Below, piece by piece: positions 1-34,435 of a stretch of DNA of 36,339 nt (position 1 is its first letter; the number at the start of each line of letters is the position of its first letter). The position numbers and the translations under genes are program-made. Where the stretch lies: positions 1 through 36,339 of the forward strand of contig DVJC01000006.1 in assembly GCA_018710835.1 (NCBI GenBank). The letters run 5' to 3'. A model generated the notes under the pieces. The model was not told where the DNA came from. It ran no database searches and saw only the letters and a list, made by a program, of their open reading frames with translations. The stretch is from Candidatus Limadaptatus stercoravium. Its GTDB lineage: Bacteria > Bacillota > Clostridia > Christensenellales > CAG-917.

Positions 1-43
1 GGCAGCCAAAAATAAGAATACGGCGGAAAACGGAAAGATTTGC

Positions 44-70
44 AAAAGCGGGGCTTTGTGCCCCGCTTTT
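44..70. terminator. Rho-independent terminator hairpin, possibly bidirectional (downstream of serA on -)
   Basis: AAAGCGGGG-CTTTGTG-CCCCGCTTT followed by a T-run on +; a shorter TTTT on -. Confidence 0.7.
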
Positions 71-101
71 TCAGTGTTTAACATTATGTTGCGTCATTAG
101 C

Positions 102-1199
102 TTATTTTATGACGCGGACTTTTATCACGCCATCTTTCGCTTCGAGTGCGGCGGCGTCGATGACGGAGTCGGTGTCGATGAGGGTATAGGTGTAGCCCTT
201 TGCCGTGGAGGACAGTCCGTCCGTACCGAGCGCTGTGCCTTCCTTGGAAAGCACGGCGATGCGGTGTTTTGTCTTGAGCTCCGCTTTGAGGCAGGGCAGG
301 TTGACGGAATTGACGATGTTGCCGTTCTCGATATAGTCCTTTAGTTCGTTCGCCGCCATGACCGCGCAGTTGTCCTCCGCTTCTTCCGTGGACGCGCCGA
401 GGTGGGGCACCGCTATGATGCCGTCGCAGGAGTTGATCTCCGCGGTGGGGAAGTCGCAGACGTACTTGTGCAGTTTGCCGCCGGCGAGCGCCGCCTTGAT
501 GTCGGACACCACGGCGAGTTCGCCGCGCGCGGCGTTGACCACCACCGCGCCGTCCGCCATTTTCGCTATCGCGGCGGAATTGATCATACCTTTGGTTTCC
601 TCGGTGGCGGGCATGTGCAGGGACACGAAGTTCGCGTCCTCATATGCTTCTTCGGCGGTGGGGCACACTTCGACGAAGGGGATCTCCGCTTTCGCCGCGT
701 CGGAGAGGTAGGGGTCGTAGCCCTTAACGGTCATGCCGAGCGCGTTCGCCGCGGCGGCGACCTTTCTGCCTATCGCGCCGAGCCCCAGCACCGCGAGCGT
801 CTTGCCCGCGATCTCGTGTCCGACGAACTGTTTCTTGCCCTTTTCCACCTGTTTCGCCACGTCGTCGCCGGTGAGAGAGGACGCCCACTTTATGCCTTCC
901 GCGAGGTTGCGCGCGGCGAGCATGAACTCGCATATCACCATTTCCTTGACCGCATTCGCGTTCGCGCCCGGCGTGTTGAAAACGACGACTCCGCGCTTTG
1001 CGTAATCGGCATGGGGGATATTGTTGACGCCCGCGCCGGCTCTTGCTACGGCAAGCACGGAGGAGGGCAGATCGTATTCCGCCATATTCGCGCTTCTGAC
1101 GAGTATGCCCGCGGGGGACGCGCTCTCGTCGACCAGGTCGTATCCGCTCAGGATCTTGTCTGCAAGAGGAGAGATGGCGTTGAGTTTCAGAATGTCCAT
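102..1199 (-). CDS. serA: D-3-phosphoglycerate dehydrogenase
   Basis: 365-aa ORF; NAD-binding motif VLGLGAIGRKVAAAANALGM, VVNAARGELAV, PHLGASTEEAE; directly downstream of serC. Confidence 0.93.
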   Translation of the reverse strand: MDILKLNAISPLADKILSGYDLVDESASPAGILVRSANMAEYDLPSSVLAVARAGAGVNNIPHADYAKRGVVVFNTPGANANAVKEMVICEFMLAARNLAEGIKWASSLTGDDVAKQVEKGKKQFVGHEIAGKTLAVLGLGAIGRKVAAAANALGMTVKGYDPYLSDAAKAEIPFVEVCPTAEEAYEDANFVSLHMPATEETKGMINSAAIAKMADGAVVVNAARGELAVVSDIKAALAGGKLHKYVCDFPTAEINSCDGIIAVPHLGASTEEAEDNCAVMAANELKDYIENGNIVNSVNLPCLKAELKTKHRIAVLSKEGTALGTDGLSSTAKGYTYTLIDTDSVIDAAALEAKDGVIKVRVIK

Positions 1200-1206
1200 A
1201 ACGCCC

Positions 1207-2280
1207 TCACTTGTTTTCCGTTTCGAACTTCTTCATGAAGCCGATGAGCGCTTTCACGCCTTCGACGGGCATCGCGTTGTAGATGGACGCGCGCATGCCG
1301 CCGGCAAGACGGTGCCCCTTGAGGGACACGAGTCCCGCGCCTTCCGCTTCCTTGACGAACTTCGCGTCGAGCTCGGCGGAGGGGGTGACGAAGGGGACGT
1401 TCATGATCGACCTGTCTTCGGGATTGACCTTGTTGGCGTAGAAGGAGGAGTTGTCGATGAAGTCGTACAGCATCGCCGCCTTTTCGCGGTTGATCTTCTC
1501 CATGGCCGCCACGCCGCCCATCTTCTTGAGATAGCGCATGTTGAGCATCATGACGTAGATCGCCCAGCAGGGAGGGGTGTTGTAGAGGCTGTTGTTGGCC
1601 GCGTGCACGGAATATTTGAACATCGTGGGGCAGATCGCCATCTCGCCGCCGAGCATATCCTTGCGGACGATGACGAGAGTGACGCCCGCGGGGGCGAGGT
1701 TCTTCTGCGCACCGGCGTAGATGAGCGCGTACTTGTTCACGTCCGCGACTTCGCTCATGATGCAGGAGGACATATCGGACACGAGCGGCGCGCCGCAGTC
1801 GGGCACATAGTTCCACTTGGTGCCGAAGATGGTGTTGTTCTCGGTGATGTGGACGTAGTCGATGTCATCGCGGAAGTCCGCACGCGTGACTTTGGGTATG
1901 TAGGTGTAGCCCGCGTCTTCGGAGGACGCGACGAGGCGGATGTCGCCGTATTTCATCGCTTCCTTGTACGCCTTTTTGGAGAAGTTGCCCGTCACGACGT
2001 AATCCGCGCGTCCCTTCTTCAGCAGATTGAGAGGGACGGACTCGAACTGCGTCGACGCGCCGCCCTGGAGCAGCAGCACTTCGTATTCGTCGGAGATGTT
2101 CATCAGCTCGCGGACGAGGGCGATGCACTCGTTGTGTATGGGTTCGTACACCTTGCCGCGGTGGCTGAGCTCCATGACGCTCATTCCCGAACCTTCGTAA
2201 TCGGTGATCTGTCTGCCGGCCTCTTCGAGCACTTCCATGGGAAGCATGCTGGGACCTGCCGAAAAGTTGTAAACTCGCAT
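1207..2280 (-). CDS. serC: Phosphoserine aminotransferase
   Basis: 357 aa starting MRVYNFSAGPSMLPMEVLEEAG; AGAQKNLAPAGVTLVIVRKD PLP-lysine region. Confidence 0.96.
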   Translation of the reverse strand: MRVYNFSAGPSMLPMEVLEEAGRQITDYEGSGMSVMELSHRGKVYEPIHNECIALVRELMNISDEYEVLLLQGGASTQFESVPLNLLKKGRADYVVTGNFSKKAYKEAMKYGDIRLVASSEDAGYTYIPKVTRADFRDDIDYVHITENNTIFGTKWNYVPDCGAPLVSDMSSCIMSEVADVNKYALIYAGAQKNLAPAGVTLVIVRKDMLGGEMAICPTMFKYSVHAANNSLYNTPPCWAIYVMMLNMRYLKKMGGVAAMEKINREKAAMLYDFIDNSSFYANKVNPEDRSIMNVPFVTPSAELDAKFVKEAEGAGLVSLKGHRLAGGMRASIYNAMPVEGVKALIGFMKKFETENK

Positions 2281-2318
2281 AGTGCCTCCTTAAACGGTCA
2301 AACCGGAAATACGCGAAT

Positions 2319-2348
2319 ATTATACAACATTCCGCGCCGCCGTGTAAA
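2319..2348 (-). promoter_or_regulatory. Putative sigma-A promoter for serC
   Basis: On -: TTTACA (2348-2343), N18, TATAAT (2324-2319). Confidence 0.5.
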
Positions 2349-2404
2349 GAATTTAACCGTGTAAATCATTCCGTGACGGAATTTTCCGTTAGTGGTCCGT
2401 GCGC

Positions 2405-2433
2405 TTGCATAAAGCGTTTATATTTTGTATAAT
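2405..2433 (+). promoter_or_regulatory. Putative sigma-A promoter for the rnj operon
   Basis: TTGCAT (2405-2410), N17, TATAAT (2428-2433). Confidence 0.6.
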
Positions 2434-2499
2434 AAAACTTAATTTGAGAAAAAATCGGATAGGCGCGCGGCATGAGCCGGCGCGCATGACAGGAGAAAT

Positions 2500-4131
2500 A
2501 TGGCAAAATCTGTGAAAGTTGTTTTTCTGGGCGGCGTGGGAGAGATAGGTAAGAACATGACCGCCATCGAGTACGGCGACGACATCGTCATCGTGGATTG
2601 CGGCGTGGAGTTCCCGCAGGGCGACAGCCCCGGCATCGACGCGATCATCCCCGACATCACTTACATCCGCGACAACCGCAGGAAACTGCGCGGCATACTC
2701 CTCACCCACGGGCACGAGGATCACATCGGCGCGCTGCCTTACTATGCGGACGAGCTGGACGTGCCCATCTACGGCACCGCGCTCACGCTCGGACTGCTGG
2801 AGCGCAAGCTCTCCGAAAGGGGAGTGAAAGCGGATCTGTGCAAGGTGAAAGAGGGCGACACCGTGAAACTCGGCTGTTTCGAGGCGGAGTTCATCAAGGT
2901 CGCGCACTCCATGGCGGGCGCGTGCGCGCTGTCGCTGACCACTCCGATAGGCATAGTGTTCGTCACCGGCGATTTCAAGATCGACAACACGCCCATAGAC
3001 GGCAAAAAGACGGATCTCCAGCGCATTGCGGAGATAGGCGCGAAAGGAGTGCTGCTCATGCTGGGCGAGTCCACCAATGTGGAACGCAAAGGCTCCTCCA
3101 CCTCCGAAAAGATGGTGGGGCAGGGGCTTGAAAACATCTTCGTCGCCAACGCTGACAAGCGTATCGTCGTGGCGTGCTTCGCCTCCTCCAACTACAGGGT
3201 GCAGCAGATACTCTGGCTAGCGGAGAAATACGGCAGGAAAGTCGTGCTCGCAGGCAGAAGCATGAAGGGCATAGTCGAAGTCGCCTCCCGCGTCGGGGAA
3301 CTGCATGTGCCGAAGGGCATCATCGCGGACGGCGTGGGCAAACTTCCTCCCGAAAAACTCGTCGTCATCGCCACGGGTTCGCAGGGAGAGCCGACCAGCG
3401 CGCTCAACCGCATGAGCCGCGGCGATTTCAACAAAGTTTCGATAGGTCCCGACGACGTGGTCGTGCTGTCCTCGACGCCCATACCCGGCAACGAGAAGTC
3501 CGTCTACGACGTCATCAACAATCTGTTCCGCAAGGGCGCGAACGTCATATACGAGGCAATGAACGAGGTGCACGTCTCCGGACACGCGTACGAGGAGGAG
3601 CTGAAGATCATGCTCTCTCTCGTGCGTCCTAAATATTTCATGCCCGTGCACGGCGAATACCGCCACCAGTTCAAGCATGCGGAGATCGCAAAATCGCTCG
3701 GCATCAAGGAGAGCAACATCGTCATACCCAACATCGGCGAAGCGTACGGCGTCAACGCGCATTCGCTCAAACAGCATTCCAATGTGCCGGCGGGCAACGT
3801 GTACGTCGACGGCGTGGTGCTCGAGGACGGCTCTTCCGTGGTGTCCGACCGCAGGTCGCTTGCCGAATACGGCATGCTGCTCGTGCTCGCGTCAGTCAAC
3901 ACCGAGAAGGGCGTGATAGCCGGAGAGCCCGACGTCATCGCGAGAGGGTTCAACCTCACCGACGAGATAGAGCAGGAGATCGCCGGCACCGTCCGCGACA
4001 CCGTGAACGGCGCGGATTTCGACGAAAACGGGCTGGGCGAGCTTGCGCGCGCCGTCAAGAAAGCGGTGCGTAAACTGTTCTACCGCGACAGGCAGTTCCC
4101 CATCATAATCCCGATCATCGTAGAGGACTGA
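2500..4131 (+). CDS. rnj: Ribonuclease J (beta-CASP metallo-beta-lactamase RNase)
   Basis: 543 aa; LTHGHEDHIGALPYY metal site; PVHGEYRHQFKHAEIAKSLGI; RNase J-like C-terminus. Confidence 0.95.
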   Translation: MAKSVKVVFLGGVGEIGKNMTAIEYGDDIVIVDCGVEFPQGDSPGIDAIIPDITYIRDNRRKLRGILLTHGHEDHIGALPYYADELDVPIYGTALTLGLLERKLSERGVKADLCKVKEGDTVKLGCFEAEFIKVAHSMAGACALSLTTPIGIVFVTGDFKIDNTPIDGKKTDLQRIAEIGAKGVLLMLGESTNVERKGSSTSEKMVGQGLENIFVANADKRIVVACFASSNYRVQQILWLAEKYGRKVVLAGRSMKGIVEVASRVGELHVPKGIIADGVGKLPPEKLVVIATGSQGEPTSALNRMSRGDFNKVSIGPDDVVVLSSTPIPGNEKSVYDVINNLFRKGANVIYEAMNEVHVSGHAYEEELKIMLSLVRPKYFMPVHGEYRHQFKHAEIAKSLGIKESNIVIPNIGEAYGVNAHSLKQHSNVPAGNVYVDGVVLEDGSSVVSDRRSLAEYGMLLVLASVNTEKGVIAGEPDVIARGFNLTDEIEQEIAGTVRDTVNGADFDENGLGELARAVKKAVRKLFYRDRQFPIIIPIIVED

Positions 4132-4132
4132 C

Positions 4133-5230
4133 ATGCAGCGCAAACCCGTCGTACTCATTCTCACATCTTCCGACGAACGCGGCGGCGCGGCGGAAAATTA
4201 CGCCGCCGCCATAAGCGCGGACGGCAGGTTCAACACTGTGGTGCTCGGTGAGGACAAGTACGGCGCGAAGGACATCTTCGGAAAGCACAGCAAAGCGGCA
4301 TTCCGCGCGGACAAGCGCAGGCTGCTCATGAGCGGCGCGGCTTCCGCAGGCAGACTGCTGAGGGCGGGGACGTGCCGCGGCAGACTGCACGGCAGGAACA
4401 GGCGCGTCGCAAACGCAGTGAAACGCTATGCGCCGGAGTACGTCCTCACGGTCACGCCGTATGCGCAGGCGGCTTTTACGGAGGCGAAGCGCAGGGCGGG
4501 ATTCGACGTGCCGTCCGTGCATGCGGTCACGTCCTTCGTGCTTCCCGGCACGGACTATCCGGCGTATGCCGCGGACGTCTATCTTGTGGAGAACGCCGAC
4601 GTCAAGGAGGAGCTGGTGTCGAGGGGCATACCGTCCAGGCACGTTGCAGTCACGGGGCTTCCCTTCGACGCGCCGCGCGTCACCCCGGCGGAAACGGAGG
4701 ACGGCAAGCAGGAACTCGGACTTCCGCGCACGCCCACCGTGTTCGTCAATGCCGGCGGCAGGGACGCGGTGGAGATACTCGGATTGCTGGCGGATCAGGG
4801 CGACATCATCAACATCGCGTGCTATGCCGAGGACGTGAAGCTCCTTGCCGCGCTGCGCACCAGGGCGGACAGGGCGGAAACGCGCAGCAACGTCGTGCTG
4901 ATCACGCGCAAGGACATGTTCCGCGAATATCTGCTCATGAGCGACATCGTGATCACGCGGTTCGAGCCGTCCGTGGTCTACACCTGCTTCAAGGCGGGTA
5001 AACCCGTCGTCGCGTTCGGAAAGAACGCGGAGGAAGAAAAAAACGTCGCCTATCTTGCCGAAAGGAAGCTCGTCATGCCGGCGCGGTCGGACATCGACGT
5101 GGTTGCGCTGATATACAAATTCATGCAGACGGACACCGCTTCGGAGTACGTCGAAAACGGAGTGGAGAGGACGGAAATGTTCTCGCTCGAAAACACGGCG
5201 AATTATCTCGCCGCCTACTCGGAAAGGTGA
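4133..5230 (+). CDS. Putative glycosyltransferase, GT-B/MurG-MGDG synthase-like
   Basis: 365 aa; VYLVENADVKEELVSRGIPSRHVAVTGLPFD resembles GT28-like linkers; C-terminal SDIVITRFEPSVVYTCFKAGKPVVAFG; tightly packed after rnj. Confidence 0.45.
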   Translation: MQRKPVVLILTSSDERGGAAENYAAAISADGRFNTVVLGEDKYGAKDIFGKHSKAAFRADKRRLLMSGAASAGRLLRAGTCRGRLHGRNRRVANAVKRYAPEYVLTVTPYAQAAFTEAKRRAGFDVPSVHAVTSFVLPGTDYPAYAADVYLVENADVKEELVSRGIPSRHVAVTGLPFDAPRVTPAETEDGKQELGLPRTPTVFVNAGGRDAVEILGLLADQGDIINIACYAEDVKLLAALRTRADRAETRSNVVLITRKDMFREYLLMSDIVITRFEPSVVYTCFKAGKPVVAFGKNAEEEKNVAYLAERKLVMPARSDIDVVALIYKFMQTDTASEYVENGVERTEMFSLENTANYLAAYSER

Positions 5231-5231
5231 T

Positions 5232-6515
5232 ATGGCAATCGTAAGATCTCTCGGAAAAGCCGCGCGCCGCGCGGGAATGCGCGCCGGCGACGACCTCGTT
5301 TCCCTCGGCGGAATACCCGTCCGGGACATTTTGGACTGCCTGTATTTCGACGGGGAAGAGAAGTTCGACGCCGAAATCGTACGGGGCGGCAAACGCCGTG
5401 TGCTGCATGTGAGAAAGAGTGCCGACGAGCCGCTCGGCATCGAACTCGAAGAGGAAATGCGCCCCATGCGCTGCCGCAACAAATGCGTGTTCTGTTTCGT
5501 CGATCAGCTGCCGAAAGGAATGCGCGAAAGCCTCTACGTCAAGGACGACGACTACCGATACAGTTTCATCAGCGGAAGCTACGTCACTCTCACCAATCTT
5601 TCCGACGACGACATAGACAGGATAATACGCCTCGGACTCAGTCCGATATACATATCCGTGCACGCTTTCACCGACGAAGTGCGGAGGCGGCTGGTGACCA
5701 ATCCCGGCACCGACACTCTCATCGCTAGGATGCGGAAACTGGGCGCCGCAGGTATAAAGATGCACACGCAGCTCGTCATTGTCCCCGGACTCAACGACGG
5801 GGAGGAGCTGACGAAGAGCATACGCGGACTGCACGGCGTGGAGGGCGTGGCGACCGTCGCCGTAGTACCCGTGGGGCTGACCGGACACCGCGAAGGGCTT
5901 GCGCCCCTCCGTCCCGCGACGCGGGAAGAATCCGCCGCGACGGTGAAACAGGTGGAAGAGCTGAATGCGGAATTCGGCGGTTTCTGCTGGTGCTCGGACG
6001 AGTATTACGTCAAGGCGGGCATGCCGCCGCGCGAATACCCGTATTACGGCGATTTCGAGCAGATAGAGAACGGAGTCGGGCTTTTCGCGGAGTTTTACGA
6101 CAACGTGGACTACGAACTCTCCTCCCTTCCCGACATGCGGCTGAACAAGAAGATCGCCCTCATCACGGGGGTGGACTTCGCGCCGTACCTCAGGGAGAAG
6201 ATGAAAGAAGTTGACGCCAAAATCGGCATTTCAAGCACCGTTTTCGGCATAATAAACCGTTTCTTCGGAGAAACGATCACAGTCGCCGGGCTTGTGACGG
6301 CAGGAGATATAACAGCACAGGCGGACTGCTCGGGCATGGACGCCGCCGTCATTCCCGACAATATGCTGAAGGAGTTCGGCGACGTATTTTTGGACAACGT
6401 AACGACGGACGAGGTGTCGCGCGCTCTCGGCGTGCCGCTCATCGTCGTGTCGCACAACGGCTCGGATCTGGTGAGCCGCATCGCGGACCGTTTCCGCGGG
6501 GAGGAGAGAAGATGA
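5232..6515 (+). CDS. DUF512 family protein (PDZ-like N-terminus, radical-SAM-like core)
   Basis: 427 aa; CRNKCVFCFVDQLPKGMRESLYVKDDDYRYSFISGSYVTLTNL is characteristic of the DUF512/TIGR03279 family; precedes der. Confidence 0.88.
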   Translation: MAIVRSLGKAARRAGMRAGDDLVSLGGIPVRDILDCLYFDGEEKFDAEIVRGGKRRVLHVRKSADEPLGIELEEEMRPMRCRNKCVFCFVDQLPKGMRESLYVKDDDYRYSFISGSYVTLTNLSDDDIDRIIRLGLSPIYISVHAFTDEVRRRLVTNPGTDTLIARMRKLGAAGIKMHTQLVIVPGLNDGEELTKSIRGLHGVEGVATVAVVPVGLTGHREGLAPLRPATREESAATVKQVEELNAEFGGFCWCSDEYYVKAGMPPREYPYYGDFEQIENGVGLFAEFYDNVDYELSSLPDMRLNKKIALITGVDFAPYLREKMKEVDAKIGISSTVFGIINRFFGETITVAGLVTAGDITAQADCSGMDAAVIPDNMLKEFGDVFLDNVTTDEVSRALGVPLIVVSHNGSDLVSRIADRFRGEERR

Positions 6516-7822
6516 AGCCTCTTATTGCCATAGTGGGACGCCCCAATGTGGGCAAATCCACGCTTTTCAACCGCATAGCCGGAGGGCAGATCGCCATCGT
6601 CGAGGATACCCCCGGCGTGACGCGTGACAGGATATACGCCGACTGCGAGTGGTGCGGCCGCGCTTTCACGCTCATTGACACCGGCGGACTCGAACTCAAG
6701 AGCGAGGACGAGATGTGGATGCACATCCGCGCGCAGGTGGAGATAGCCGTCGAAGCGTCCGACGCCATCATTTACGTCGTGGACGGCAAGACAGGGCTCA
6801 CGCTCGACGACGAGGCGATCGCGGCGTATCTGCGCAAGGCGAAAGTCCCGGTGATACTTGCCGTCAACAAGATAGACAACAACGAACTGCATGAAGCGTA
6901 CGGCTTCTATTCGCTCGGTTTCGGGGAGCCTTACGCCGTTTCCGCCGCGCAGGGGAAGGGCATCGGCGAGCTTCTCGACGCGGTGACGGACGCCGTCCCC
7001 GCCGTCGCGCCCGAAGAGGACGAGGACGTGATAAAGATCGCCATAGTCGGCAAGCCGAATGCGGGCAAGAGTTCCATCGTCAACAGGCTGCTCGGCTACG
7101 AGCGCGTGATAGTCAGCGACGTCGCCGGCACGACGCGCGACGCGATAGATACGCCCATCACCGTGGGAGGGGACAAATACGTCCTTATCGACACCGCCGG
7201 CATACGCAGAAAAAAGAGCGTCGGCGACGGATTGGAGCGTTACAGCGTTCTGCGCAGTCTGCTCGCGGTGCGCCGCGCGGACGTCGCGGTCATCGTGCTG
7301 GACTCTGCCGAGGGAGTGACGGAGCAGGACGTCAAGATCGCGGGTTATGTGGACGCGCAGGGCAAACCCTCCGTCGTGGTAATGAACAAGTGGGACCTTG
7401 TGGCAAAGGATACGCATACGATAGAGAAGTACGAGAAAAAGTTGCATGAAGACCTTAAATTCATGGACTACTTCAAGTCCGTGTATGTGTCGGCAATGAC
7501 GGGAAAACGCGCGGACGCGATACTTCCCGCGTGCAGAAAGGTGCTCGCCAACAGCCGCAGGAGGATCGCTACGGGACTTCTCAACGAAGTGCTTGCGGAC
7601 GCTACGCGCATCAGCGAGCCTCCCTCCAAACTCGGCAGACGGCTCAAACTGCTGTACATCACGGAGGCTTCCGTCGCGCCGCCCACTTTCGTGCTCAAGG
7701 TCAACGATCCCGACCTCATGCACTTCAGCTACAAGCGGTATCTCGAAAATGCGCTCCGCCGGAGCTTCGACTTCTCGGGCACGCCCATACGCCTGCTGGT
7801 GCGCGGAGGAAAAGAGGAATAA
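6512..7822 (+). CDS. der: Ribosome-associated GTPase Der/EngA
   Basis: Two G domains (GRPNVGKSTLFNR and GKPNAGKSSIVNR), NKID/NKWD; ATGA overlap with the upstream gene. Confidence 0.97.
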   Translation: MKPLIAIVGRPNVGKSTLFNRIAGGQIAIVEDTPGVTRDRIYADCEWCGRAFTLIDTGGLELKSEDEMWMHIRAQVEIAVEASDAIIYVVDGKTGLTLDDEAIAAYLRKAKVPVILAVNKIDNNELHEAYGFYSLGFGEPYAVSAAQGKGIGELLDAVTDAVPAVAPEEDEDVIKIAIVGKPNAGKSSIVNRLLGYERVIVSDVAGTTRDAIDTPITVGGDKYVLIDTAGIRRKKSVGDGLERYSVLRSLLAVRRADVAVIVLDSAEGVTEQDVKIAGYVDAQGKPSVVVMNKWDLVAKDTHTIEKYEKKLHEDLKFMDYFKSVYVSAMTGKRADAILPACRKVLANSRRRIATGLLNEVLADATRISEPPSKLGRRLKLLYITEASVAPPTFVLKVNDPDLMHFSYKRYLENALRRSFDFSGTPIRLLVRGGKEE

Positions 7823-7869
7823 AGCCGCTTGCGCTTCGGCGCAATGTGTGGTAGGATAATTGAAAACGT

Positions 7870-7907
7870 CCGCGGCAGGACCGCGGCGCGCCGTTCGGAT
7901 CGGCGCG
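7870..7907 (+). promoter_or_regulatory. Tandem GC-rich hairpins in the leader of the aminotransferase gene
   Basis: CCGCGG-cagga-CCGCGG (7870-7886), then CGCGCCG-ttcggat-CGGCGCG (7887-7907) abutting SD AGGAGG (7908-7913). Confidence 0.4.
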
Positions 7908-7916
7908 AGGAGGATT

Positions 7917-9194
7917 ATGGATTATAAGTCTTTTTCCGCAAAGGAACTCGAAAATCTGCTCCGCGACGAGCAGAAACGCTTCAAGAAGCTCGTAAAAGAG
8001 GGCAGAAACGTGGATATGACGCGCGGCCGTCCCTCAAAGGAACAGCTTGAGATCGCAATGCCCATGCTGAAAGCCGCGGGCACTTACAACTATTCGGCAG
8101 AAACGTCCGACGCCCGCAATTACGGCGATCTCGGCGGTACGAAAGCGTGCAAGGCGCTCTTTGCCGAGCTTTTCGGTGTGAAACCGGAGGAAGTATTCGT
8201 CGGCGACGGCAGCAGCCTCGATCTCATGTACACGCTTGTGCATTTCGCAAAGCAGTTCGGCGTGCTCGGCGCCGCGCCCTGGAACAGCCTGAAAAAGGTC
8301 AAGTTCATCTGTCCTGCGCCCGGCTACGACCGCCACTTCTCCATCTGCCAGCAGTTCGGCATCGAGATGATCACCGTCCGCATGAAAGAGGACGGCCCCG
8401 ATATGGACGTCATCGAGTCCCTCGTCAGAGAGGACGATTCCATCAAGGGCATCTGGTGCGTGCCCAAGTATTCCAACCCCACGGGCATCACGTTCTCGGA
8501 CAGCGTGGTTGAAAGACTCGCCACCATGAAGACGGCGGCAAGCGACTTCCGCATCTTCTGGGACAACGCATACATGGTGCACAGCCTCTACGACGAGGAC
8601 GACAAACTGAAAAACATCTTTGACGTCGCGCGCAAGGCGGGCACGATGAACAGGATCTATTCCTTCGCGTCCACGTCCAAGATCACGTTTGCGGGCAGCG
8701 GCATTTCCGCTATTGCGGCGTCCGAGGAAAACATCAAGGATATCATGGGCAAGATGTTCTTCAAGTGCATCAACGCCAACAAAGTAAATCAGGTCATGCA
8801 CGTCAATTTCCTGAAAAACGCCGACGGCGTCAGGGAAGTGATGAAGAAGCATGCCGCGATGCTGCGTCCCAAATTCGAGCTGTTCGATAAGAAGTTTACG
8901 GAAGCGTTCGACGGCGACGAGTTCGTCAAGTGGTCCAAGCCGCGCGGAGGTTACTTTATTTCCGTAGACGTCAAGTCCTGCGCGAAACGTATAGTCGAAC
9001 TCGCTGCGACCGCGGGCGTCAAATTCACCGCTGCAGGCGCAACCTTCCCCTACAAACTCGACGACATGGACAGCAACATCCGCGTTGCACCGTCAGTTCC
9101 TTCCCTCGAAGAGATGGAGTTCGCCATCGACGTCATGATCTCCGCCATACGCCAGGCGCGTATGGAGATCGTCCTTGCCAAAACCAAGTCCTGA
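7917..9194 (+). CDS. PLP-dependent aminotransferase (Aminotran_MocR / aspartate aminotransferase-like)
   Basis: Start trimmed from 7860 to the ATG with SD AGGAGG; MDYKSFSAKELENLLRDEQKRFKKL, VDMTRGRPSKEQLEIAMPML, SNPTGITFSDSVVERLA, STSKITFAGSGISA. Confidence 0.85.
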   Translation: MDYKSFSAKELENLLRDEQKRFKKLVKEGRNVDMTRGRPSKEQLEIAMPMLKAAGTYNYSAETSDARNYGDLGGTKACKALFAELFGVKPEEVFVGDGSSLDLMYTLVHFAKQFGVLGAAPWNSLKKVKFICPAPGYDRHFSICQQFGIEMITVRMKEDGPDMDVIESLVREDDSIKGIWCVPKYSNPTGITFSDSVVERLATMKTAASDFRIFWDNAYMVHSLYDEDDKLKNIFDVARKAGTMNRIYSFASTSKITFAGSGISAIAASEENIKDIMGKMFFKCINANKVNQVMHVNFLKNADGVREVMKKHAAMLRPKFELFDKKFTEAFDGDEFVKWSKPRGGYFISVDVKSCAKRIVELAATAGVKFTAAGATFPYKLDDMDSNIRVAPSVPSLEEMEFAIDVMISAIRQARMEIVLAKTKS

Positions 9195-9436
9195 GCGGAC
9201 GGCTGACTGTGGTACCGAACGTTACATAAGTTATCGCAAAGTCCTGAGCGGACGGCTGACTGTGGTGCAGTGCATTACATAAGTTACCGCAAAGTCCTGT
9301 GCGTCCGGGTTCTGAGCGGACGGCTGACTACGGTACCGAACGTTAAATAAGTTATCGCAAAGTCCTGAGCGGACGGCTGACTGTGGCGCAGTGCATTGCA
9401 TAAGTTTCGGCAAAGTCCTGAGCGGGCGGCCGGCTA
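9188..9436. repeat. 53-bp tandem repeat array, about 4.4 units, one 15-bp insertion
   Basis: GTCCTGAGCGGACGGCTGACTGTGG... phases: GTCC at 9188, 9241, 9294, 9362, 9415; CTGAGCGG resumes at 9312 after a 15-bp insert. Confidence 0.9.
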
Positions 9437-9481
9437 TGCGGTAGAGAGTATAAAACGCACATTTAACAGCCGGCACACGCG

Positions 9482-9526
9482 TCGGACGGCCACCGACAAA
9501 GCAAAACCGCGGCATATGCCGCGGTT
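9482..9526. repeat. 45-bp dispersed repeat, copy 1 (contains terminator palindrome)
   Basis: TCGGACGGCCACCGACAAAGCAAAACCGCGGCATATGCCGCGGTT; 44/45 identical to 29227-29271. Confidence 0.9.
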
Positions 9527-9530
9527 TTTT
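9503..9530. terminator. Bidirectional intrinsic terminator between convergent genes
   Basis: AAAACCGCGGCATATGCCGCGGTTTT perfect palindrome with a T-run on +, and TTTTGCTTTG on -. Confidence 0.85.
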
Positions 9531-9607
9531 GTGTAGTCGGTTATTGTTTTGCTGCTTTTAGCGCTGTATGCCGGAGCATACTTTCTTCTCTCCGCCGGAC
9601 GGCGAAG

Positions 9608-10561
9608 TCATGCCTCGGCGGGGAAGATGTCAGCGAAGGTGGTGTCCGCGGAGAGTATGGAATACTGCGCAGAGGTAGCTACATTACCTCTTATTCTTAT
9701 TCCGTCGGTGATGATCTCCGATAAGTCGAGAGTGATGAGTCCGGTGATTTCAAGTGTTTTGTTTTCAAAGAGCTTAAAGAGCTCCATCGGGAAGAATTCA
9801 ACGTTATAGGCGAGGAATTCCGCGTCTTCATAAGGCATGAACGCCGTGATGTCCTGCGAGGTGGTCATCGCGGCGAAGTTGCCGTCCGAAAAGGTCACGG
9901 AGCCGGTCACGTCGCCGAAGTCGATCCAGTCGTAGATCATGGGCATGATGTCGTAGCCCGCGTCATATGCGAGTATGGGAGCGACCTGCTGCAGTATCCA
10001 GTCCAGCGCGCTCTCGCCGGGGATGGTGTAATCTGACGCCGATCCGCCGATGAGTTCCGCGTCATAGAAGGTGTTCATGCCGAAGTCCAGCACGGGAATG
10101 GTGTCATGCAGGGACTGTTGCGTAAAAGTAACGTCTTCGGCAAGAGGATAGAGCCCGCCGAGAGCAACGGCATCCAACGTGAATACACCGTCCGCGCTTT
10201 TGTGTACGGAAAGATCGACGTCGAGTCCGTTTTCGAGCGCGCCGGCGAAAATTCCGCTTGCTATGGCGTCAAGCCCGTCCACCTTGACGGTGTAGTCCAT
10301 GCGGAACTCGTCACCCAGATACACACGTTTGCCCTCGAGGGTGATCTTTACGGGGACTGCTCCTTTACCGCTGCCGAGAGTGGCGTCGATGACGCCCGTA
10401 TCCGTGCTCATTTTGTATTCCGCGCCGTCCCATGCGGACTTCGCATTTGCATAGCTCGCGACGAAATCGTCTTTGTTGCACGCTGCGAGCGCAAGGGCGG
10501 AAACCAGAAGGCAGACGAGCAGTATAAGTGACACAATGATGGTTTTAGCAGTGCGTTTCAT
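9608..10561 (-). CDS. Putative lipoprotein of unknown function
   Basis: 317 aa; signal peptide/lipobox MKRTAKTIIVSLILLVCLLVSALALAAC; 14 bp downstream of the GH18 gene. Confidence 0.7.
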   Translation of the reverse strand: MKRTAKTIIVSLILLVCLLVSALALAACNKDDFVASYANAKSAWDGAEYKMSTDTGVIDATLGSGKGAVPVKITLEGKRVYLGDEFRMDYTVKVDGLDAIASGIFAGALENGLDVDLSVHKSADGVFTLDAVALGGLYPLAEDVTFTQQSLHDTIPVLDFGMNTFYDAELIGGSASDYTIPGESALDWILQQVAPILAYDAGYDIMPMIYDWIDFGDVTGSVTFSDGNFAAMTTSQDITAFMPYEDAEFLAYNVEFFPMELFKLFENKTLEITGLITLDLSEIITDGIRIRGNVATSAQYSILSADTTFADIFPAEA

Positions 10562-29226: not shown

Positions 29227-29271
29227 TCGGACGGTCACCGACAAAGCAAAACCGCGGCATATGCCGCGGTT
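29227..29271. repeat. 45-bp dispersed repeat, copy 2 (contains terminator palindrome)
   Basis: TCGGACGGTCACCGACAAAGCAAAACCGCGGCATATGCCGCGGTT; one mismatch (C9490/T29235) to copy 1. Confidence 0.9.
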
Positions 29272-29336: not shown

Positions 29337-30293
29337 TCAGTAGCCTTTTCGGCAGTCAACGATGTTGTCGGGGAGAGCTCCGTTGAGGTATCGCAAGACG
29401 TTGTTCAGCGTATCTTCTACATATCTTGCGTGTCCGTCGGCTACCTGCATTGCTTTGTGGGATGAGAGCAGAACGTTGTCAAGCGTCTGGAACGGGACGT
29501 CAAACGGAAGAAGAAGTTCGTCCGCAGATGCCGGCTTTTCGCGCCATGTATCTATGGCGGCTCCTCCCATGCCGCCGTTGGCGAGGGCTTCGAAGAGAGC
29601 CGCTTCGTCTATGCAGTTGCTGCGTCCCACATTGACGATGTATTTACCTTTGAGCAGTCCGAAAAGTTCTTTGCCGAACAAGTTGTCGGTGGACGGAGTT
29701 TTGGGCAGAGAAACGAAGAGTATGTCGCTTGCTTCACATAATTCACGCAAGGAATTCACAAGCAGGATGTCGTCGGGATATTCCTTTCCGCGATCCGTCG
29801 TATAGCATTTGATCCCGTTTGCGGCAAGCAGAGAATAGATTTCTCTGCCTATATGTCCGAACCCTGCCAGTCCTGCTTTCATCGAAAACAGGCTGCGCCA
29901 GTAAGGATTGTCCGTTGCCCAGTTGCCGAGGCGCATCTTACGGTCGAATTCCGCCGTTCGGCTGACAAGAGTGACCGCCAGGCTGAAAGCGTACTGAGCT
30001 ATACTGCGTGAATTGACATGTGAATTCGCAAGAATTATGCCGCGCTTTGCAAATTCCCGTACGGGAAAATCGTCCACACCGGTTTTGTAGGCAAACACCG
30101 CCTTGAGGTCATCGGCGTCTTTGAGTTTATCTGCCGACATTTTTTTCCCGATGAATATATCAGTGTCGCGGAGAGAGTAGCCGTCAAGTCCGACGACCGC
30201 CACTTCGGCAAAGCCGGAGAGCGCGGCGGCCATTTTTGCGAAAGACTCATCCATTGACGATATGCTCAGACAAATACGGTATTTTTTTGTCAC
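29337..30293 (-). CDS. D-isomer-specific 2-hydroxyacid dehydrogenase family protein
   Basis: 318 aa; AGLAGFGHIGREIYSLLAANGI Rossmann motif, KGKYIVNVGRSNCIDEAALFEAL, GGAAIDTWREKP. Confidence 0.85.
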   Translation of the reverse strand: MTKKYRICLSISSMDESFAKMAAALSGFAEVAVVGLDGYSLRDTDIFIGKKMSADKLKDADDLKAVFAYKTGVDDFPVREFAKRGIILANSHVNSRSIAQYAFSLAVTLVSRTAEFDRKMRLGNWATDNPYWRSLFSMKAGLAGFGHIGREIYSLLAANGIKCYTTDRGKEYPDDILLVNSLRELCEASDILFVSLPKTPSTDNLFGKELFGLLKGKYIVNVGRSNCIDEAALFEALANGGMGGAAIDTWREKPASADELLLPFDVPFQTLDNVLLSSHKAMQVADGHARYVEDTLNNVLRYLNGALPDNIVDCRKGY

Positions 30294-31249
30294 TGAATGT
30301 CCTCCGTCTTGTTCATAAAACTTATTATATCATTTTCGCTCGCTTTAAGCACATCGCCTTTCACCTGATGTTTCAACGCAAATGCCGCCGCGGCGAAACG
30401 CAGGATGTCGATATCGTTCATTCCGCACAGCAGCGCATGCAGGAACGCCCCGTTGAATGCGTCGCCTCCGCCGATTTTTTCCGTTACCGGGAAAGAGAAA
30501 ACGGGCAGTTCGCTGCGCCTTTCGCCGCGATGCAGCATGGCTATTCCGACTGAGTGTAAATACGGTGAGACGACATTTCTGTCGCGCAGCACAAGGTATT
30601 TGCACGGATAGTCATCCAATGCGTTTTCTTCACCGGTTTGCAAGAACGCATCCAGATCCCGGCTGCTTGCGAGCAAAATATCCGCAATTTCGGCAGCGCG
30701 GCGGAGATGAGCGCGCGCGTTGTCTGCAGTCCACAATGCAGGACGGTAGTTGAAATCGAACGAAACCGTGATGTTTCTCTTTTTTGCTTCGTGCATAAGT
30801 CTGAACGCAAGATCGCGCGAAGAGGGAGAGAGAGCGAGAGATATTCCGCTGATATGGAAAAGGACGGCGTCGTCGAAGACTTTTTCGAAATCGAACGAGT
30901 CCTCCGTAAGAAGCGTGAATTGCGAGTGGCGGCGCGCATAGACCACGTTTGCGCCGCGGCTTGCGGAGCCTGATTCGGAAAAATACATTCCGATGGTGTC
31001 GCCGCCGGTCAGCACTCCCGATACGTCTATACCGAGTCCGGTCAGATGATCGAGTGCGGCTTCTCCCAAAGGTCCTTCGGGCAGAGCGGAGAGGAAAGAA
31101 GTCCTGTGCCCCAATGCCGAAAGGCATGCGAGCACGTTTGATTCCGTGCCGCCGTAGCACGCGTTGAATGAGCGGCTGTCCCGTATCGTGCCGTCAGCCG
31201 CGGAAAGCCGCAGGAGCAATTCGCCGTAAGCAACGATTTTGCCGTTCAT
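30290..31249 (-). CDS. PfkB-family carbohydrate kinase (2-keto-3-deoxygluconate kinase-like)
   Basis: 319 aa; GELLLRLSAADGTIRDSRSFNACYGGTESNVLACLSALG; IGGGDAFNGAFLHALL; ATGA overlap with downstream gene. Confidence 0.85.
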   Translation of the reverse strand: MNGKIVAYGELLLRLSAADGTIRDSRSFNACYGGTESNVLACLSALGHRTSFLSALPEGPLGEAALDHLTGLGIDVSGVLTGGDTIGMYFSESGSASRGANVVYARRHSQFTLLTEDSFDFEKVFDDAVLFHISGISLALSPSSRDLAFRLMHEAKKRNITVSFDFNYRPALWTADNARAHLRRAAEIADILLASSRDLDAFLQTGEENALDDYPCKYLVLRDRNVVSPYLHSVGIAMLHRGERRSELPVFSFPVTEKIGGGDAFNGAFLHALLCGMNDIDILRFAAAAFALKHQVKGDVLKASENDIISFMNKTEDIQ

Positions 31250-32787
31250 ACAGTAGCCTCCGTCGCTTCGGACATTTTGAGTTCCTTTTCAATCCGTTCA
31301 CTGCACAGGTCGGCATAATAAAGGCATGCCAGCAGAGCTTCGCCGCATTCTTTTTCGAAAGGCATACCCAACGCGCGCCTCACTCTGTATGCCGTGCCGT
31401 CGAAGTGCTGTCTCAGGCGCGTTACGCGGGGAGCGAACCTGCGTCGTACATAAATGATCCTGCGCGGATCGAGTTTCAGTTCGTATCCGAAGTTTATAGC
31501 GATATCGTCCAGTGGCACGAGATAAAGATCGCTGTCAAGTTTTGCGCCAAAGATCGCAGGCAAGTCGTCCTTTTCGGCTTTCTTTGCCGCGTCAGCCGCT
31601 TTTTCCTGCAGTTTGTCTTTAAGTTCCGCGGCGGTCATGTCGGCGATCACATAGAAATACATGTTCGGCTTGCCGCCCTCTATAAGGTCGCGCGCGAGTC
31701 CCAAAAAATTGTTCTCTACGGAAAAAGGCTTCAGGCAGCTTGCTTCGATGCCGTAGTTTTTGGAGAGCGTATCCAGTATGATTTCCTGCAGTGCGGCGGC
31801 GGTCCCGCTTGCTCCGGGAGTTTTGCATGAAGAAAAAGCCTTTTCTTTGAGAGCGAGCGATATCGGCTGCGCAAATTTATCCTTCCACGTGGTTTTTCTT
31901 TTGCCGCGCTTTTCTATTAGTACATATCCGTCCGTTGTGAATACCAGTCCGTTTATACCCAGTTGGTTGCCGAGTCTGGATTCCGGCAGAGGAGAGACTT
32001 TGTCTTTGAATTCGTAAATGTCGCGTATTGTGATGTTGCCGTCGAGTTTGTAATCCATACAGCGGTTGGTGACCAGCATATAAAAGTATTGCGACCGCTG
32101 CGTTTTGAGCGTAAGACTTTTTCCGTCGGATTCGACGTCCTGCAGTCTGACAGTGACGGTATTGCGTATGGATGAACCGCCGTGAGCTTTGAGAAGCTCC
32201 GTTGCATGTTCGCGGATGAAGGAGGGGAGTTCGGACATTTCTTTCGAATCGGCAAAGACCATACTTGTGTCGCCGTTTACGTTTGCATACACATTCAGCC
32301 CGGAGAGAAAGAGTCTGCCGTCCATGTATTCGTTGATGTCATTTTCGCGCCGCGCATATTCTTCCGAGTAAGTGTCGGCGACCATATTCCGGGGCCTCTT
32401 GCGATCATGAGGCACTCGTTTCAGCTGCATGAATATGCCGTCGGGCGAAAACACGTTGCCGTTTGTTTCCTTGGTCGGATCCGGAACGGTATGCTTATAA
32501 TATTTTGATATTATTTTATGATGGTCGTCTTCCAGTTTCAGCGACTCTTCCATCGTGTGCTTTATTTTCAATGCGATTTTTGCCACAATGAGGGAGAAAG
32601 CCGCGGCAAGGAAGATCGACAGCATATCTGTCCCGGTAATAAACTCCAGGATTTTGTTTTTGGCGTTTTCTCCGGAAGCGAACGCGCCGCCTAGTGCAAG
32701 CACCGCAAGAGCGAAAAGTATGAGTGCGATCAGCTGCACCCAAAAGTTTTTGAAGATTTTTTCGCAGATCTTAAAGAACTTTTTCAT
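31246..32787 (-). CDS. Two-TM protein with Nudix-like domain (degenerate Nudix box), function unknown
   Basis: Start trimmed to ATG at 32787 after AGGTGGGG; two N-terminal TM helices; GLVFTTDGYVLIEKRGKRKTTWKDKFAQPISLALK...AALQEIILDTLSKNYGIEA resembles a Nudix fold with an altered REXXEEXG. Confidence 0.55.
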   Translation of the reverse strand: MKKFFKICEKIFKNFWVQLIALILFALAVLALGGAFASGENAKNKILEFITGTDMLSIFLAAAFSLIVAKIALKIKHTMEESLKLEDDHHKIISKYYKHTVPDPTKETNGNVFSPDGIFMQLKRVPHDRKRPRNMVADTYSEEYARRENDINEYMDGRLFLSGLNVYANVNGDTSMVFADSKEMSELPSFIREHATELLKAHGGSSIRNTVTVRLQDVESDGKSLTLKTQRSQYFYMLVTNRCMDYKLDGNITIRDIYEFKDKVSPLPESRLGNQLGINGLVFTTDGYVLIEKRGKRKTTWKDKFAQPISLALKEKAFSSCKTPGASGTAAALQEIILDTLSKNYGIEASCLKPFSVENNFLGLARDLIEGGKPNMYFYVIADMTAAELKDKLQEKAADAAKKAEKDDLPAIFGAKLDSDLYLVPLDDIAINFGYELKLDPRRIIYVRRRFAPRVTRLRQHFDGTAYRVRRALGMPFEKECGEALLACLYYADLCSERIEKELKMSEATEATV

Positions 32788-32818: not shown

Positions 32819-32848
32819 AATATATCACAAAATATCGCATGCGGTCAA
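32819..32848 (-). promoter_or_regulatory. Putative promoter of the 2TM-Nudix-like operon
   Basis: On -: TTGACC (32848-32843), N18, TATATT (32824-32819). Confidence 0.55.
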
Positions 32849-32902
32849 CAGCGGCGGACTTCGGCGGCTATGCGCGGCGGATCCGCTTCGGATGGCGGAT
32901 TG

Positions 32903-32931
32903 TCATATTCGGCGGAAGGGGGGCATATGTT
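32903..32931 (+). promoter_or_regulatory. SigE-like sporulation promoter upstream of spoIVA
   Basis: TCATATT (32903-32909), N14, CATATGTT (32924-32931); resembles the mother-cell SigE consensus (ATATT ... CATACAnT). Confidence 0.55.
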
Positions 32932-32956
32932 TCAGTAAACCGAAACGGAGGAGTTT

Positions 32957-34435
32957 ATGGACAAATTCGACCTTTATCGAGACATTGCCACACGCACGGG
33001 AGGGGACGTTTACGTCGGCGTCGTCGGACCGGTCAGGACGGGCAAATCCACCATCATCAAGCAGTTTATGGAGAAGCTGGTGGTCGGCGGCATCGAAAAC
33101 AAAGACGTGCGCGCACGCGCCGTCGACGAGATACCGCAGTCCGCCGACGGAAAAACCATCATGACGACTCAGCCCAAGTTCGTGCCGGCGGATGCGGTGA
33201 GGGTGGTTTTTCAGGACAATCTTGCCGTCAACATGAGGCTCATCGACTGCGTGGGCTACATGGTGAGCGGAGCTCTCGGCGGCGAGGAGGACGGCAGAGA
33301 ACGCATGGTGCGCACTCCGTGGTCCGACGAAGAGATGCCCTTTTCCGAGGCGGCGGCGCTCGGCACGGACAAAGTCATCCGTGAGCACAGCACGGTTGCG
33401 CTCGCCGTCACCACGGACGGCTCGTTCACGGACATCCCGCGCGAGGCGTACGAACCTGCCGAGGAGCGCGTCATCGAGGAACTGAAGCGTACAGGGAAGC
33501 CTTTTGCCATAGTGCTCAACACCGCGGATCCGGCGTCCGAGCAGGCGTACGCGCTTAAATGCGCGTTGGAAGAAAAGTACGGCGTGTCCGTATCTCTCGT
33601 CAATGCGCTGAACATGAGCGAGAGCGACATATCCGGTATAATGGAAAACATATTGCTCGAATTCGGGGTGAGGCTCATCGACTTCGATCTGCCCCGCTGG
33701 GTGCAGGCGCTTGCTCCCGATGACGACGTGGTGAAGGAGATCGTGTCCGCCGTGCGCGAGATGGGCGAGAATGTGTCGAAGATGAAAGATTACACCCTGG
33801 TGGACGAGTATTTCGCGGACAAGGAGTTCTGGAAAACGCCGGACAAGGTGGAGCTTGACGCCGGCAAGGGCAGGGTGTATGTCGCCGTTGCGCCGAAGGA
33901 CGACGTGTTCTTCAAAGTGGCGAGCCGCGAATGCGGTCTGGAACTTGCTGACGACTTCGCCTTGCTTTCCCACCTCAAACAGCTCGCCCGTGCGCGCCGA
34001 AGGACGGAAAAGCTCATCGACGCGATCGACCAGGTGGAAGCCACGGGCTACGGCATCGTGCTCCCCACCATGGAGGAGATGGTGCTCGAAGAGCCGGAGA
34101 TCATACGTCAGGGACAGCAGTACGGCGTGAAACTCAAAGCGAGCGCGCCTTCGCTGCACATCATGAAAGTGGATGTGGAAACGGAAGTGCGTCCCATCGT
34201 GGGCAGCGAGCAGCAGAGCTCCGAACTCGTGGACGCGATGCTGGGCGATTTCGAGAACGACAAGCAGGCTATATGGGACACCAACATCTTCGGGCGCTCG
34301 CTCTCATCGCTGGTCGCGGACGGCATCAACAACAAGCTGATGAGCGTGCCCGTCGACGCGGAGCAAAAGCTGCGCAAGACTCTCGGCCGCATCGTCAACG
34401 AGGGCAAGGGCGGAGTGATCTGCATACTTCTGTGA
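32957..34435 (+). CDS. spoIVA: Stage IV sporulation protein A
   Basis: 492 aa; MDKFDLYRDIATRTGGDVYVGVVGPVRTGKSTIIKQFMEKLV, C-terminus KGGVICILL. Confidence 0.97.
   Translation: MDKFDLYRDIATRTGGDVYVGVVGPVRTGKSTIIKQFMEKLVVGGIENKDVRARAVDEIPQSADGKTIMTTQPKFVPADAVRVVFQDNLAVNMRLIDCVGYMVSGALGGEEDGRERMVRTPWSDEEMPFSEAAALGTDKVIREHSTVALAVTTDGSFTDIPREAYEPAEERVIEELKRTGKPFAIVLNTADPASEQAYALKCALEEKYGVSVSLVNALNMSESDISGIMENILLEFGVRLIDFDLPRWVQALAPDDDVVKEIVSAVREMGENVSKMKDYTLVDEYFADKEFWKTPDKVELDAGKGRVYVAVAPKDDVFFKVASRECGLELADDFALLSHLKQLARARRRTEKLIDAIDQVEATGYGIVLPTMEEMVLEEPEIIRQGQQYGVKLKASAPSLHIMKVDVETEVRPIVGSEQQSSELVDAMLGDFENDKQAIWDTNIFGRSLSSLVADGINNKLMSVPVDAEQKLRKTLGRIVNEGKGGVICILL

What the first reader, a model, noticed from the sequence alone, without database searches (positions are those of the whole stretch)
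29337..32787. ATGA-overlapped operon: 2TM Nudix-like protein + PfkB kinase + D-2-hydroxyacid dehydrogenase
Seen: three - strand genes with two 4-bp overlaps (31246-31249 and 30290-30293) and one promoter, implying co-translation. Established: 2TM proteins fused to a Nudix-family domain are described among CBASS effectors (SMODS-associated NUDIX type). Here there is no CD-NTase, and the partners are a KDG-kinase-like and a 2-hydroxyacid-dehydrogenase-like enzyme. The Nudix box looks degenerate (AALQEIILDTLSKNYG rather than GX5EX7REUXEEXGU), which suggests ligand binding rather than hydrolysis. Inference: either a sugar-acid metabolic module with a membrane sensor, or an uncharacterised nucleotide/sugar-phosphate signalling or defence system.
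Basis: partly seen in the sequence, partly recalled or inferred. Interest (0 to 1): 0.7.

Follow-up and report, generated by a model that had tools for sequence, protein, structure and literature searches.

The report
Membrane Nudix-like sugar-acid enzyme cassette
Three overlapping genes, which stay together as a unit in scattered gut Clostridia, encode a membrane protein with a worn-out NUDT22-like Nudix domain plus a sugar-acid kinase and an oddly modified dehydrogenase; it is most likely an undescribed small sugar-acid metabolism or sensing module rather than the phage-defence system it resembled.

Summary
The three genes, both 4-bp overlaps and one plausible promoter are real. The trio is a conserved unit: every sufficiently long contig with a full-length relative of the membrane protein (18 loci plus the window, several Clostridia families) has the kinase and dehydrogenase next to it, once fused into one 634-aa gene. 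Flanks differ, and the three proteins' distances co-vary.

The membrane protein (513 aa, 2TM) is Nudix-like, but its closest solved fold is human NUDT22 (UDP-glucose hydrolase), not a CBASS Sa_NUDIX effector, which it does not match. Distant relatives keep intact Nudix boxes (REFREECGI, NEINDELGL). The trio copies lost the metal-binding acids and carry an invariant Asn instead. The dehydrogenase replaces the catalytic Glu with an invariant Lys, found in 0 of 27 other dehydrogenases checked. The kinase is KDG-kinase-like with its catalytic Asp intact.

Best reading: a patchily distributed, membrane-tethered two-step sugar-acid kinase/reductase cassette (same logic as Pseudomonas KguK/KguD) with a probably non-hydrolytic NUDT22-type binding domain as sensor or tether. 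Substrate and activity are untested. Defence is possible but unsupported: no CD-NTase, no defence neighbours recognised, no phage copies found.

The parts
32819..32848 (-). promoter-like site TTGACC-N18-TATATT with extended TG
   Evidence: consensus scan; 10 of 12 matches; not above chance count for the region, but correctly placed
31246..32787 (-). TMN: 513-aa two-TM protein with NUDT22-like Nudix-fold domain (no known Pfam family)
   Evidence: AF2 model pLDDT 79 / pTM 0.78, Foldseek NUDT22 E 1.8e-11
32683..32745 (-). first predicted transmembrane helix (residues 15-35)
   Evidence: hydropathy and AF2 helix
32563..32631 (-). second predicted transmembrane helix (residues about 53-75)
   Evidence: hydropathy and AF2 helix 53-84 (low confidence at 76-90)
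31588..31968 (-). Nudix-like core (residues 274-400) with conserved GINGL, DG, EKR and EGGKP motifs
   Evidence: alignments A1, A4, A5; collinear with NUDT22 over 113 columns
31747..31776 (-). degenerate Nudix box LDTLSKNYGI (residues 338-347): the three Glu of REuxEExGu are T340, K343, N344
   Evidence: alignments A1, A5, A8; relatives have REFREECGI, NEINDELGL, EEMNDELGI, RGVYEELGV
30290..31249 (-). PfkB-family sugar-acid (KDG-kinase-like) kinase, 319 aa; catalytic Asp263 in GGGD invariant
   Evidence: Pfam PfkB 4.4e-28, PDB 4gm6 3e-50 and KDG kinase 2afb 6e-48, A2
29337..30293 (-). D-2-hydroxyacid dehydrogenase, 318 aa; GxGxxG, Arg224 and His279 kept, catalytic Glu replaced by Lys253
   Evidence: Pfam, PDB alignments, A3, comparison with 27 other DHDHs
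29535..29537 (-). codon of Lys253 at the catalytic-Glu position
29250..29271 (.). bidirectional terminator-like hairpin between dehydrogenase gene and convergent folD

Best explanation
The trio is a compact, patchily distributed cassette for a sugar-acid pathway attached to, or controlled at, the membrane. Shown by sequence: one likely transcription unit, fixed gene order, joint inheritance, a KDG-kinase-like PfkB with its catalytic Asp, a 2-hydroxyacid dehydrogenase with Rossmann motif, Arg and His but an invariant Lys in place of the catalytic Glu, and a 2TM protein whose soluble domain resembles NUDT22 but has lost the metal-binding acids. Inferred: the kinase phosphorylates a 2-keto sugar acid; the dehydrogenase reduces or oxidises the phosphorylated product at C2, as KguK and KguD do for 2-ketogluconate, with Lys50, Lys70 and Lys253 suiting a more negatively charged substrate; TMN no longer hydrolyses but binds a nucleotide sugar or the pathway's sugar phosphate, and holds or gates the two enzymes at the membrane.
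For: Trio conserved in all loci with enough contig, no fourth gene recurring across lineages; kinase and dehydrogenase fused in one 634-aa ORF in L026, both domains confirmed by Pfam, as expected for consecutive steps; protein distances correlate r=0.94/0.81/0.78, 0 of 2000 permutations each. Kinase: closest solved relatives 4gm6 and KDG kinase 2afb, sharing Y89, Y104, R106, NYR(167-169) and GD(262-263). Dehydrogenase: trio copies score 531-537 bits against 146 for the next best in 291 class genomes; Lys253 and Lys70 only in trio copies. TMN: NUDT22 is the top PDB fold, E 1.8e-11, target TM 0.58-0.70; hhalign 27.6 over 113 collinear columns against at most 21.4 in 200 shuffles and 20.5 in unrelated ORFs. 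Intact-box relatives, one beside glycosyltransferase, epimerase and UDP-glucose-dehydrogenase genes (L108). Precedent for kinase + reductase: PMC11678583. Flanks with a family match are housekeeping.
Against: No transporter, regulator, aldolase or epimerase travels with the trio, unlike the kgu operon. NCBIfam KDG-kinase equivalog cut-offs are not reached, so the substrate is open. The loss of the dehydrogenase Glu and of the Nudix acids could mean that one or both are non-catalytic. The NUDT22 match is strong in structure but weak in sequence (hhalign probability 9%). Nothing shows that TMN binds a sugar nucleotide or touches the enzymes. Patchy distribution without a metabolic neighbourhood is also what a defence or signalling cassette would show.
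Confidence: 0.45

Rival explanations
1. Phage-defence or stress-signalling system: the kinase and dehydrogenase make or remove a small sugar-acid-derived signal, and TMN is the 2TM effector whose degenerate Nudix domain binds it and opens or damages the membrane.
For: Two TM helices plus a probably non-hydrolytic ligand-binding domain is the layout of CBASS TM effectors such as Cap16, whose NUDIX mutant stays toxic (PMC10419184); patchy distribution (6 of 150 relatives, 3 of 391 class genomes), lower GC than flanks, trio kept as a unit.
Against: No CD-NTase in the genome assembly, no PADLOC hit for any of the three, no match to Sa_NUDIX, flanks of ten lineages are housekeeping or unknown with no defence island recognised, nothing in phage or viral collections.
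Confidence: 0.17
2. TMN is still an active sugar-nucleotide hydrolase using other residues, feeding sugar-1-phosphate or a sugar acid into the kinase/dehydrogenase pair.
For: NUDT22 itself was said to lack a conventional NUDIX box and showed no activity in a first screen (PMC5688067), yet hydrolyses UDP-glucose (PMC10101856); TMN has strongly conserved polar residues (E292, K293, R294, K304, Q307, R366, D367, E370, K373).
Against: NUDT22 keeps QEICDEVNL, with acids at the metal positions, whereas all trio TMN lack them, with Asn invariant at one.
Confidence: 0.15
3. The dehydrogenase is a pseudo-enzyme or NAD(H) sensor and the cassette is a redox-regulated kinase with a membrane anchor.
For: Catalytic Glu changed to invariant Lys; the 2HADH family includes branches with broken triads of doubtful activity (PMC6303947).
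Against: Arg224, His279, GxGxxG and the Gly of the substrate loop are invariant, and other Glu-replaced 2HADHs (FDH; SERA type IIIK) are active.
Confidence: 0.13
4. Chance neighbours: three unrelated metabolic genes in one operon of this lineage.
For: None beyond the lack of an obvious common pathway.
Against: Same order in 19 loci from several families, a fusion, correlated distances, dehydrogenase subfamily found only with TMN in the class sample.
Confidence: 0.01

Closest known systems
Human NUDT22 (UDP-glucose/galactose hydrolase)
   Same: Best fold match for the soluble part, well ahead of ordinary Nudix domains; collinear motifs G-x-x-x-x-x-T-x-D, LGIAR, FYV
   Different: TMN has two N-terminal TM helices and lacks the acids that NUDT22 keeps in QEICDEVNL; only 17% identity over 113 columns
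CBASS TM-NUDIX effector (Cap16 / Pfam Sa_NUDIX PF18167)
   Same: TM helices followed by a Nudix-type domain
   Different: No profile match, about twice as long, no CD-NTase partner, NUDT22-like rather than Sa_NUDIX
[quoted passage not shown]
   Same: A sugar-acid kinase and a reductase of the 2-keto sugar-acid phosphate in one operon (PMC11678583); that KguK is PfkB-type and KguD 2HADH-type is from my own knowledge
   Different: No KguT transporter or KguE; TMN instead; Lys for Glu in the dehydrogenase; orthology to KguK/KguD not tested
2-keto-3-deoxygluconate kinase (PDB 2afb, 1v19; PfkB family)
   Same: E 6e-48 to 2afb, shared pocket and catalytic residues
   Different: Below every NCBIfam KDG-kinase equivalog cut-off
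SERA type IIIK and FDH branches of the 2HADH family
   Same: Other 2HADHs with a replaced or missing catalytic Glu that stay active (PMC6303947)
   Different: IIIK replaces His by Lys and lacks the Glu; FDH has Gln; here His stays and Glu becomes Lys

Membership tests
CBASS 2TM-NUDIX (Sa_NUDIX, Cap16) | match to Sa_NUDIX domain | tested here: not met
   no Pfam hit at E<=1; hhalign against three genuine Sa_NUDIX proteins score 16, E 0.33
CBASS 2TM-NUDIX (Sa_NUDIX, Cap16) | neighbouring CD-NTase | tested here: not met
   none in trio or flanks; no SMODS hit in the assembly, which is about 80% complete; the control Sa_NUDIX locus L034 has a CD-NTase-like gene next door, recognised by eye
NUDT22-like Nudix | NUDT22 fold | tested here: met
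   Foldseek E 1.8e-11, target TM up to 0.70, next non-NUDT22 hit 2.8e-4
NUDT22-like Nudix | sequence similarity beyond chance | tested here: met
   hhalign 27.6 against at most 21.4 in 200 shuffles; one relative found with the same profile hits Pfam NUDIX above cut-off
Catalytic Nudix hydrolases | metal-binding Glu of REuxEExGu | tested here: not met
   T340, K343, N344 in the window; acids absent at these places in trio copies
PfkB kinases | G-x-G-D catalytic Asp and N-terminal GG motif | tested here: met
   G262, D263, Y32-G33-G34 invariant; Pfam 4.4e-28
KDG kinase (equivalog) | score above curated equivalog cut-off | tested here: not met
   186 bits vs 440, 116 vs 400, 42 vs 400
D-2-hydroxyacid dehydrogenases | NAD-binding and catalytic domains, GxGxxG, Arg, His | tested here: met
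   Pfam PF02826 and PF00389; R224 and H279 invariant
D-2-hydroxyacid dehydrogenases | catalytic Glu of the Arg-Glu-His triad | tested here: not met
   invariant Lys253; Glu in 27 of 27 other DHDHs. The review allows single replacements in this triad, so this marks a variant, not a non-member
kgu-type 2-ketogluconate operon | transporter and KguE epimerase with kinase and reductase | tested here: not met
   no other gene recurs with the trio
kgu-type 2-ketogluconate operon | activity on 2-ketogluconate | not testable with these tools
   needs enzyme assay

The most novel reading that the evidence does not exclude
A signalling or immune cassette of a new type: the kinase and the Lys-variant dehydrogenase make or erase a phosphorylated sugar-acid signal, and the 2TM protein with its dead NUDT22-like domain is the membrane effector that reads it.
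Probability: 0.14. Interest if true: 0.85.

Novelty: new variant of a known kind. Interest (0 to 1): 0.5.

Why it matters
It defines bacterial relatives of NUDT22, an outlier among human Nudix enzymes, with both intact-box and degenerate membrane-anchored forms, and ties the degenerate form to a fixed pair of sugar-acid enzymes. The dehydrogenase has a Glu-to-Lys change in the catalytic triad that the passages read in the 2HADH review do not list, so it is a direct test of how that family tolerates active-site change. If TMN is a sensor or an effector, this is a clean three-gene system to assay.

Tried and rejected
CBASS/Cap16 membership: rejected by profile comparison and absence of a CD-NTase. 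Sequence searches of TMN against PDB, alone or as profiles: only chance-level hits, so the NUDT22 link came from the AF2 model. The hit of A4 to a designed membrane protein, 9ivk (E 7e-4), covers the TM helices and nearby linker only and was ignored. Foldseek against viral models gave only generic Nudix hits. Phage, viral and plasmid searches for the trio: none; the plasmid hits are short relatives without kinase and dehydrogenase. Literature search for PfkB + 2HADH + anti-phage: nothing. PADLOC hit of an L026 neighbour to a CARF/beta-galactosidase/LolE model covers only an internal stretch (model positions 311-474) and was not taken as defence evidence. PfkB genes missed by the greedy caller in some loci were recovered by tblastn.

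Full report
Observation. The three - strand genes exist at the stated coordinates: TMN 31246-32787, PfkB 30290-31249, dehydrogenase 29337-30293, overlapping by 4 bp at both joints (ATGA and GTGA), each with a ribosome-site-like sequence. A TTGACC-18-TATATT promoter-like site lies at 32848-32819 and a bidirectional terminator-like hairpin at 29250-29271, between the trio and convergent folD. Pfam recognises the kinase and the dehydrogenase but gives nothing for TMN; NCBIfam and PADLOC give nothing usable for TMN either.

Conservation. TMN relatives were found in 16 genome contigs and a few genomes. In every locus with enough contig around a full-length TMN, PfkB and the dehydrogenase follow in the same order: L008, L010-L016, L018-L024, L026, L032 and L033 (L009 is the same contig as L024; L022 starts inside TMN; L017 and L025 end inside PfkB). 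In L026 the kinase and dehydrogenase are one 634-aa ORF with both Pfam domains. No other neighbour recurs outside closely related loci. Flanks with a Pfam match are housekeeping-type genes: NAD synthase, PGI, M18 and M13 peptidases, YidC-type protein, GH3, polysaccharide deacetylase, DegV, Band 7, biotin/lipoate ligase. Pairwise distances of the three proteins correlate strongly (0.94, 0.81, 0.78; 0 of 2000 permutations); this is expected for joint inheritance and, alone, would not separate transfer from vertical descent.

Distribution. The module is rare and patchy: 6 of 150 relatives with any TMN match including this genome (two of these have only short relatives without the enzymes), 3 of 391 in the class including this genome, and no full-length TMN outside the class in the phylum sample. 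In its own genus only this genome and G002 have it, in both convergent to folD. GC falls to 0.49-0.53 across the trio against about 0.59 around it. No copy was found in the phage, viral or plasmid collections.

TMN. An AF2 model on 17 sequences is usable (pLDDT 79, pTM 0.78; TM region less certain). Foldseek against PDB puts human NUDT22 at ranks 1-6 (E 1.8e-11 to 1.5e-10, target TM 0.58-0.70), with the next hits several orders weaker. Sequence supports this modestly: the TMN profile aligns to NUDT22 (segment of 5lf9) over 113 collinear columns with score 27.6, against at most 21.4 in 200 shuffles and 20.5 in unrelated ORFs. The NUDT22 query letters were first recalled from memory, then checked against the PDB chain, and the chain's own letters were used for the comparison. 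NUDT22 converts UDP-glucose to UMP and glucose-1-phosphate (PMC10101856).

Degenerate box. More distant relatives of TMN carry intact or near-intact boxes: REFREECGI in a protein of G674, RGVYEELGV in G844 (which also passes the Pfam NUDIX cut-off), NEINDELGL in Acetoanaerobium and EEMNDELGI on an Arthrobacter plasmid. The automatic alignment A8 slips by a few columns at this point, so the register was read by eye from the motif. The window has DTLSKNYGI (trio consensus xTxKKNFGL), so all metal-binding Glu are gone while N344 is invariant among the trio copies. Loss of hydrolysis is therefore likely but not shown. The G844 relative lies beside glycosyltransferase, NAD-dependent epimerase and UDP-glucose/GDP-mannose dehydrogenase genes, a hint to sugar nucleotides.

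Kinase. Closest solved proteins are PfkB 4gm6 and the KDG kinase 2afb; the G-x-G-D motif and residues shared with 2afb are invariant. NCBIfam KDG-kinase cut-offs are not reached, so the exact substrate is open.

Dehydrogenase. It has both 2HADH domains, GxGxxG, Arg224 and His279, but Lys253 at the position of the catalytic Glu, aligned residue by residue with PDB 2d0i and phosphoglycerate dehydrogenase 2p9c. Lys253 and Lys70 are invariant in the trio copies; of 27 other class DHDHs examined all have Glu at the first place and none has Lys at the second. Trio copies form a tight subfamily (531-537 bits against 146 for the next best in 291 genomes). The 2HADH review lists Glu-to-Gln (FDH) and the His-to-Lys IIIK type but, in the passages read, not this change (PMC6303947). 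Lys50 lies in the region where SERA and PdxB enzymes keep a phosphate-binding Arg (same review); that it binds phosphate here is inference.

Mechanism. A kinase followed by a reductase is the logic of Pseudomonas KguK and KguD: 2-ketogluconate to 2-keto-6-phosphogluconate to 6-phosphogluconate (PMC11678583). The trio lacks transporter and KguE, so I claim that it works like this pair, not that it is a kgu operon. TMN as a membrane sensor or tether is inference from its layout, lost acids and fixed linkage. CBASS membership was tested and not met. Confidence in the sugar-acid reading is about 0.45; defence or signalling about 0.17.

Caveats. The genomes are mostly MAGs; the window's is about 80% complete. 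The contig shows a rearrangement next to the trio (see noticed items), which could be an assembly joint. It does not affect the trio, which is intact in many other genomes.

Noticed in passing
window 9265-9526, 29236-29271 and about 32895: In all nine genus-mates window 1-9265 abuts spoIVA (32895-34435) closely, and the 9.5-29.2 kb block (IMPDH, folD etc.) lies elsewhere. An exact direct repeat of at least 34 bp (9491-9524 and 29236-29269; its core has only these two copies in the genome) flanks that block, so it is a rearrangement or an assembly joint.
   Followed up: partly
L048 5554-7627: Acetoanaerobium TMN-like 2TM protein with intact Nudix box is followed by a 266-aa gene that looks PP2C-like by eye (EDG...DG), but Pfam gives no match.
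   Followed up: partly
L050 6013-8262: Lachnospira eligens TM-less relative is followed by a 391-aa gene without Pfam match that looks HATPase-like by eye, and a DUF4325 gene, next to polysaccharide genes.
   Followed up: no
L027 4733-6855: A short TMN relative overlaps by 4 bp with a Gfo/Idh/MocA oxidoreductase, another sugar-type dehydrogenase partner.
   Followed up: no
L028 3661-5598: A short TMN relative lies just downstream of a gene that looks like an ordinary Nudix ADP-ribose pyrophosphatase by eye.
   Followed up: no
L032 6719-8167: The TMN gene of G194 has an in-frame TGA while kinase and dehydrogenase are intact: split gene, sequencing error or decay.
   Followed up: no
window about 9180-9460; L051 about 9410-9670: Repeated copies of a unit like GTCCTGAGCGGACGGCTGACTATGG near the rearrangement point, also present in G004 at the same place.
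   Followed up: no
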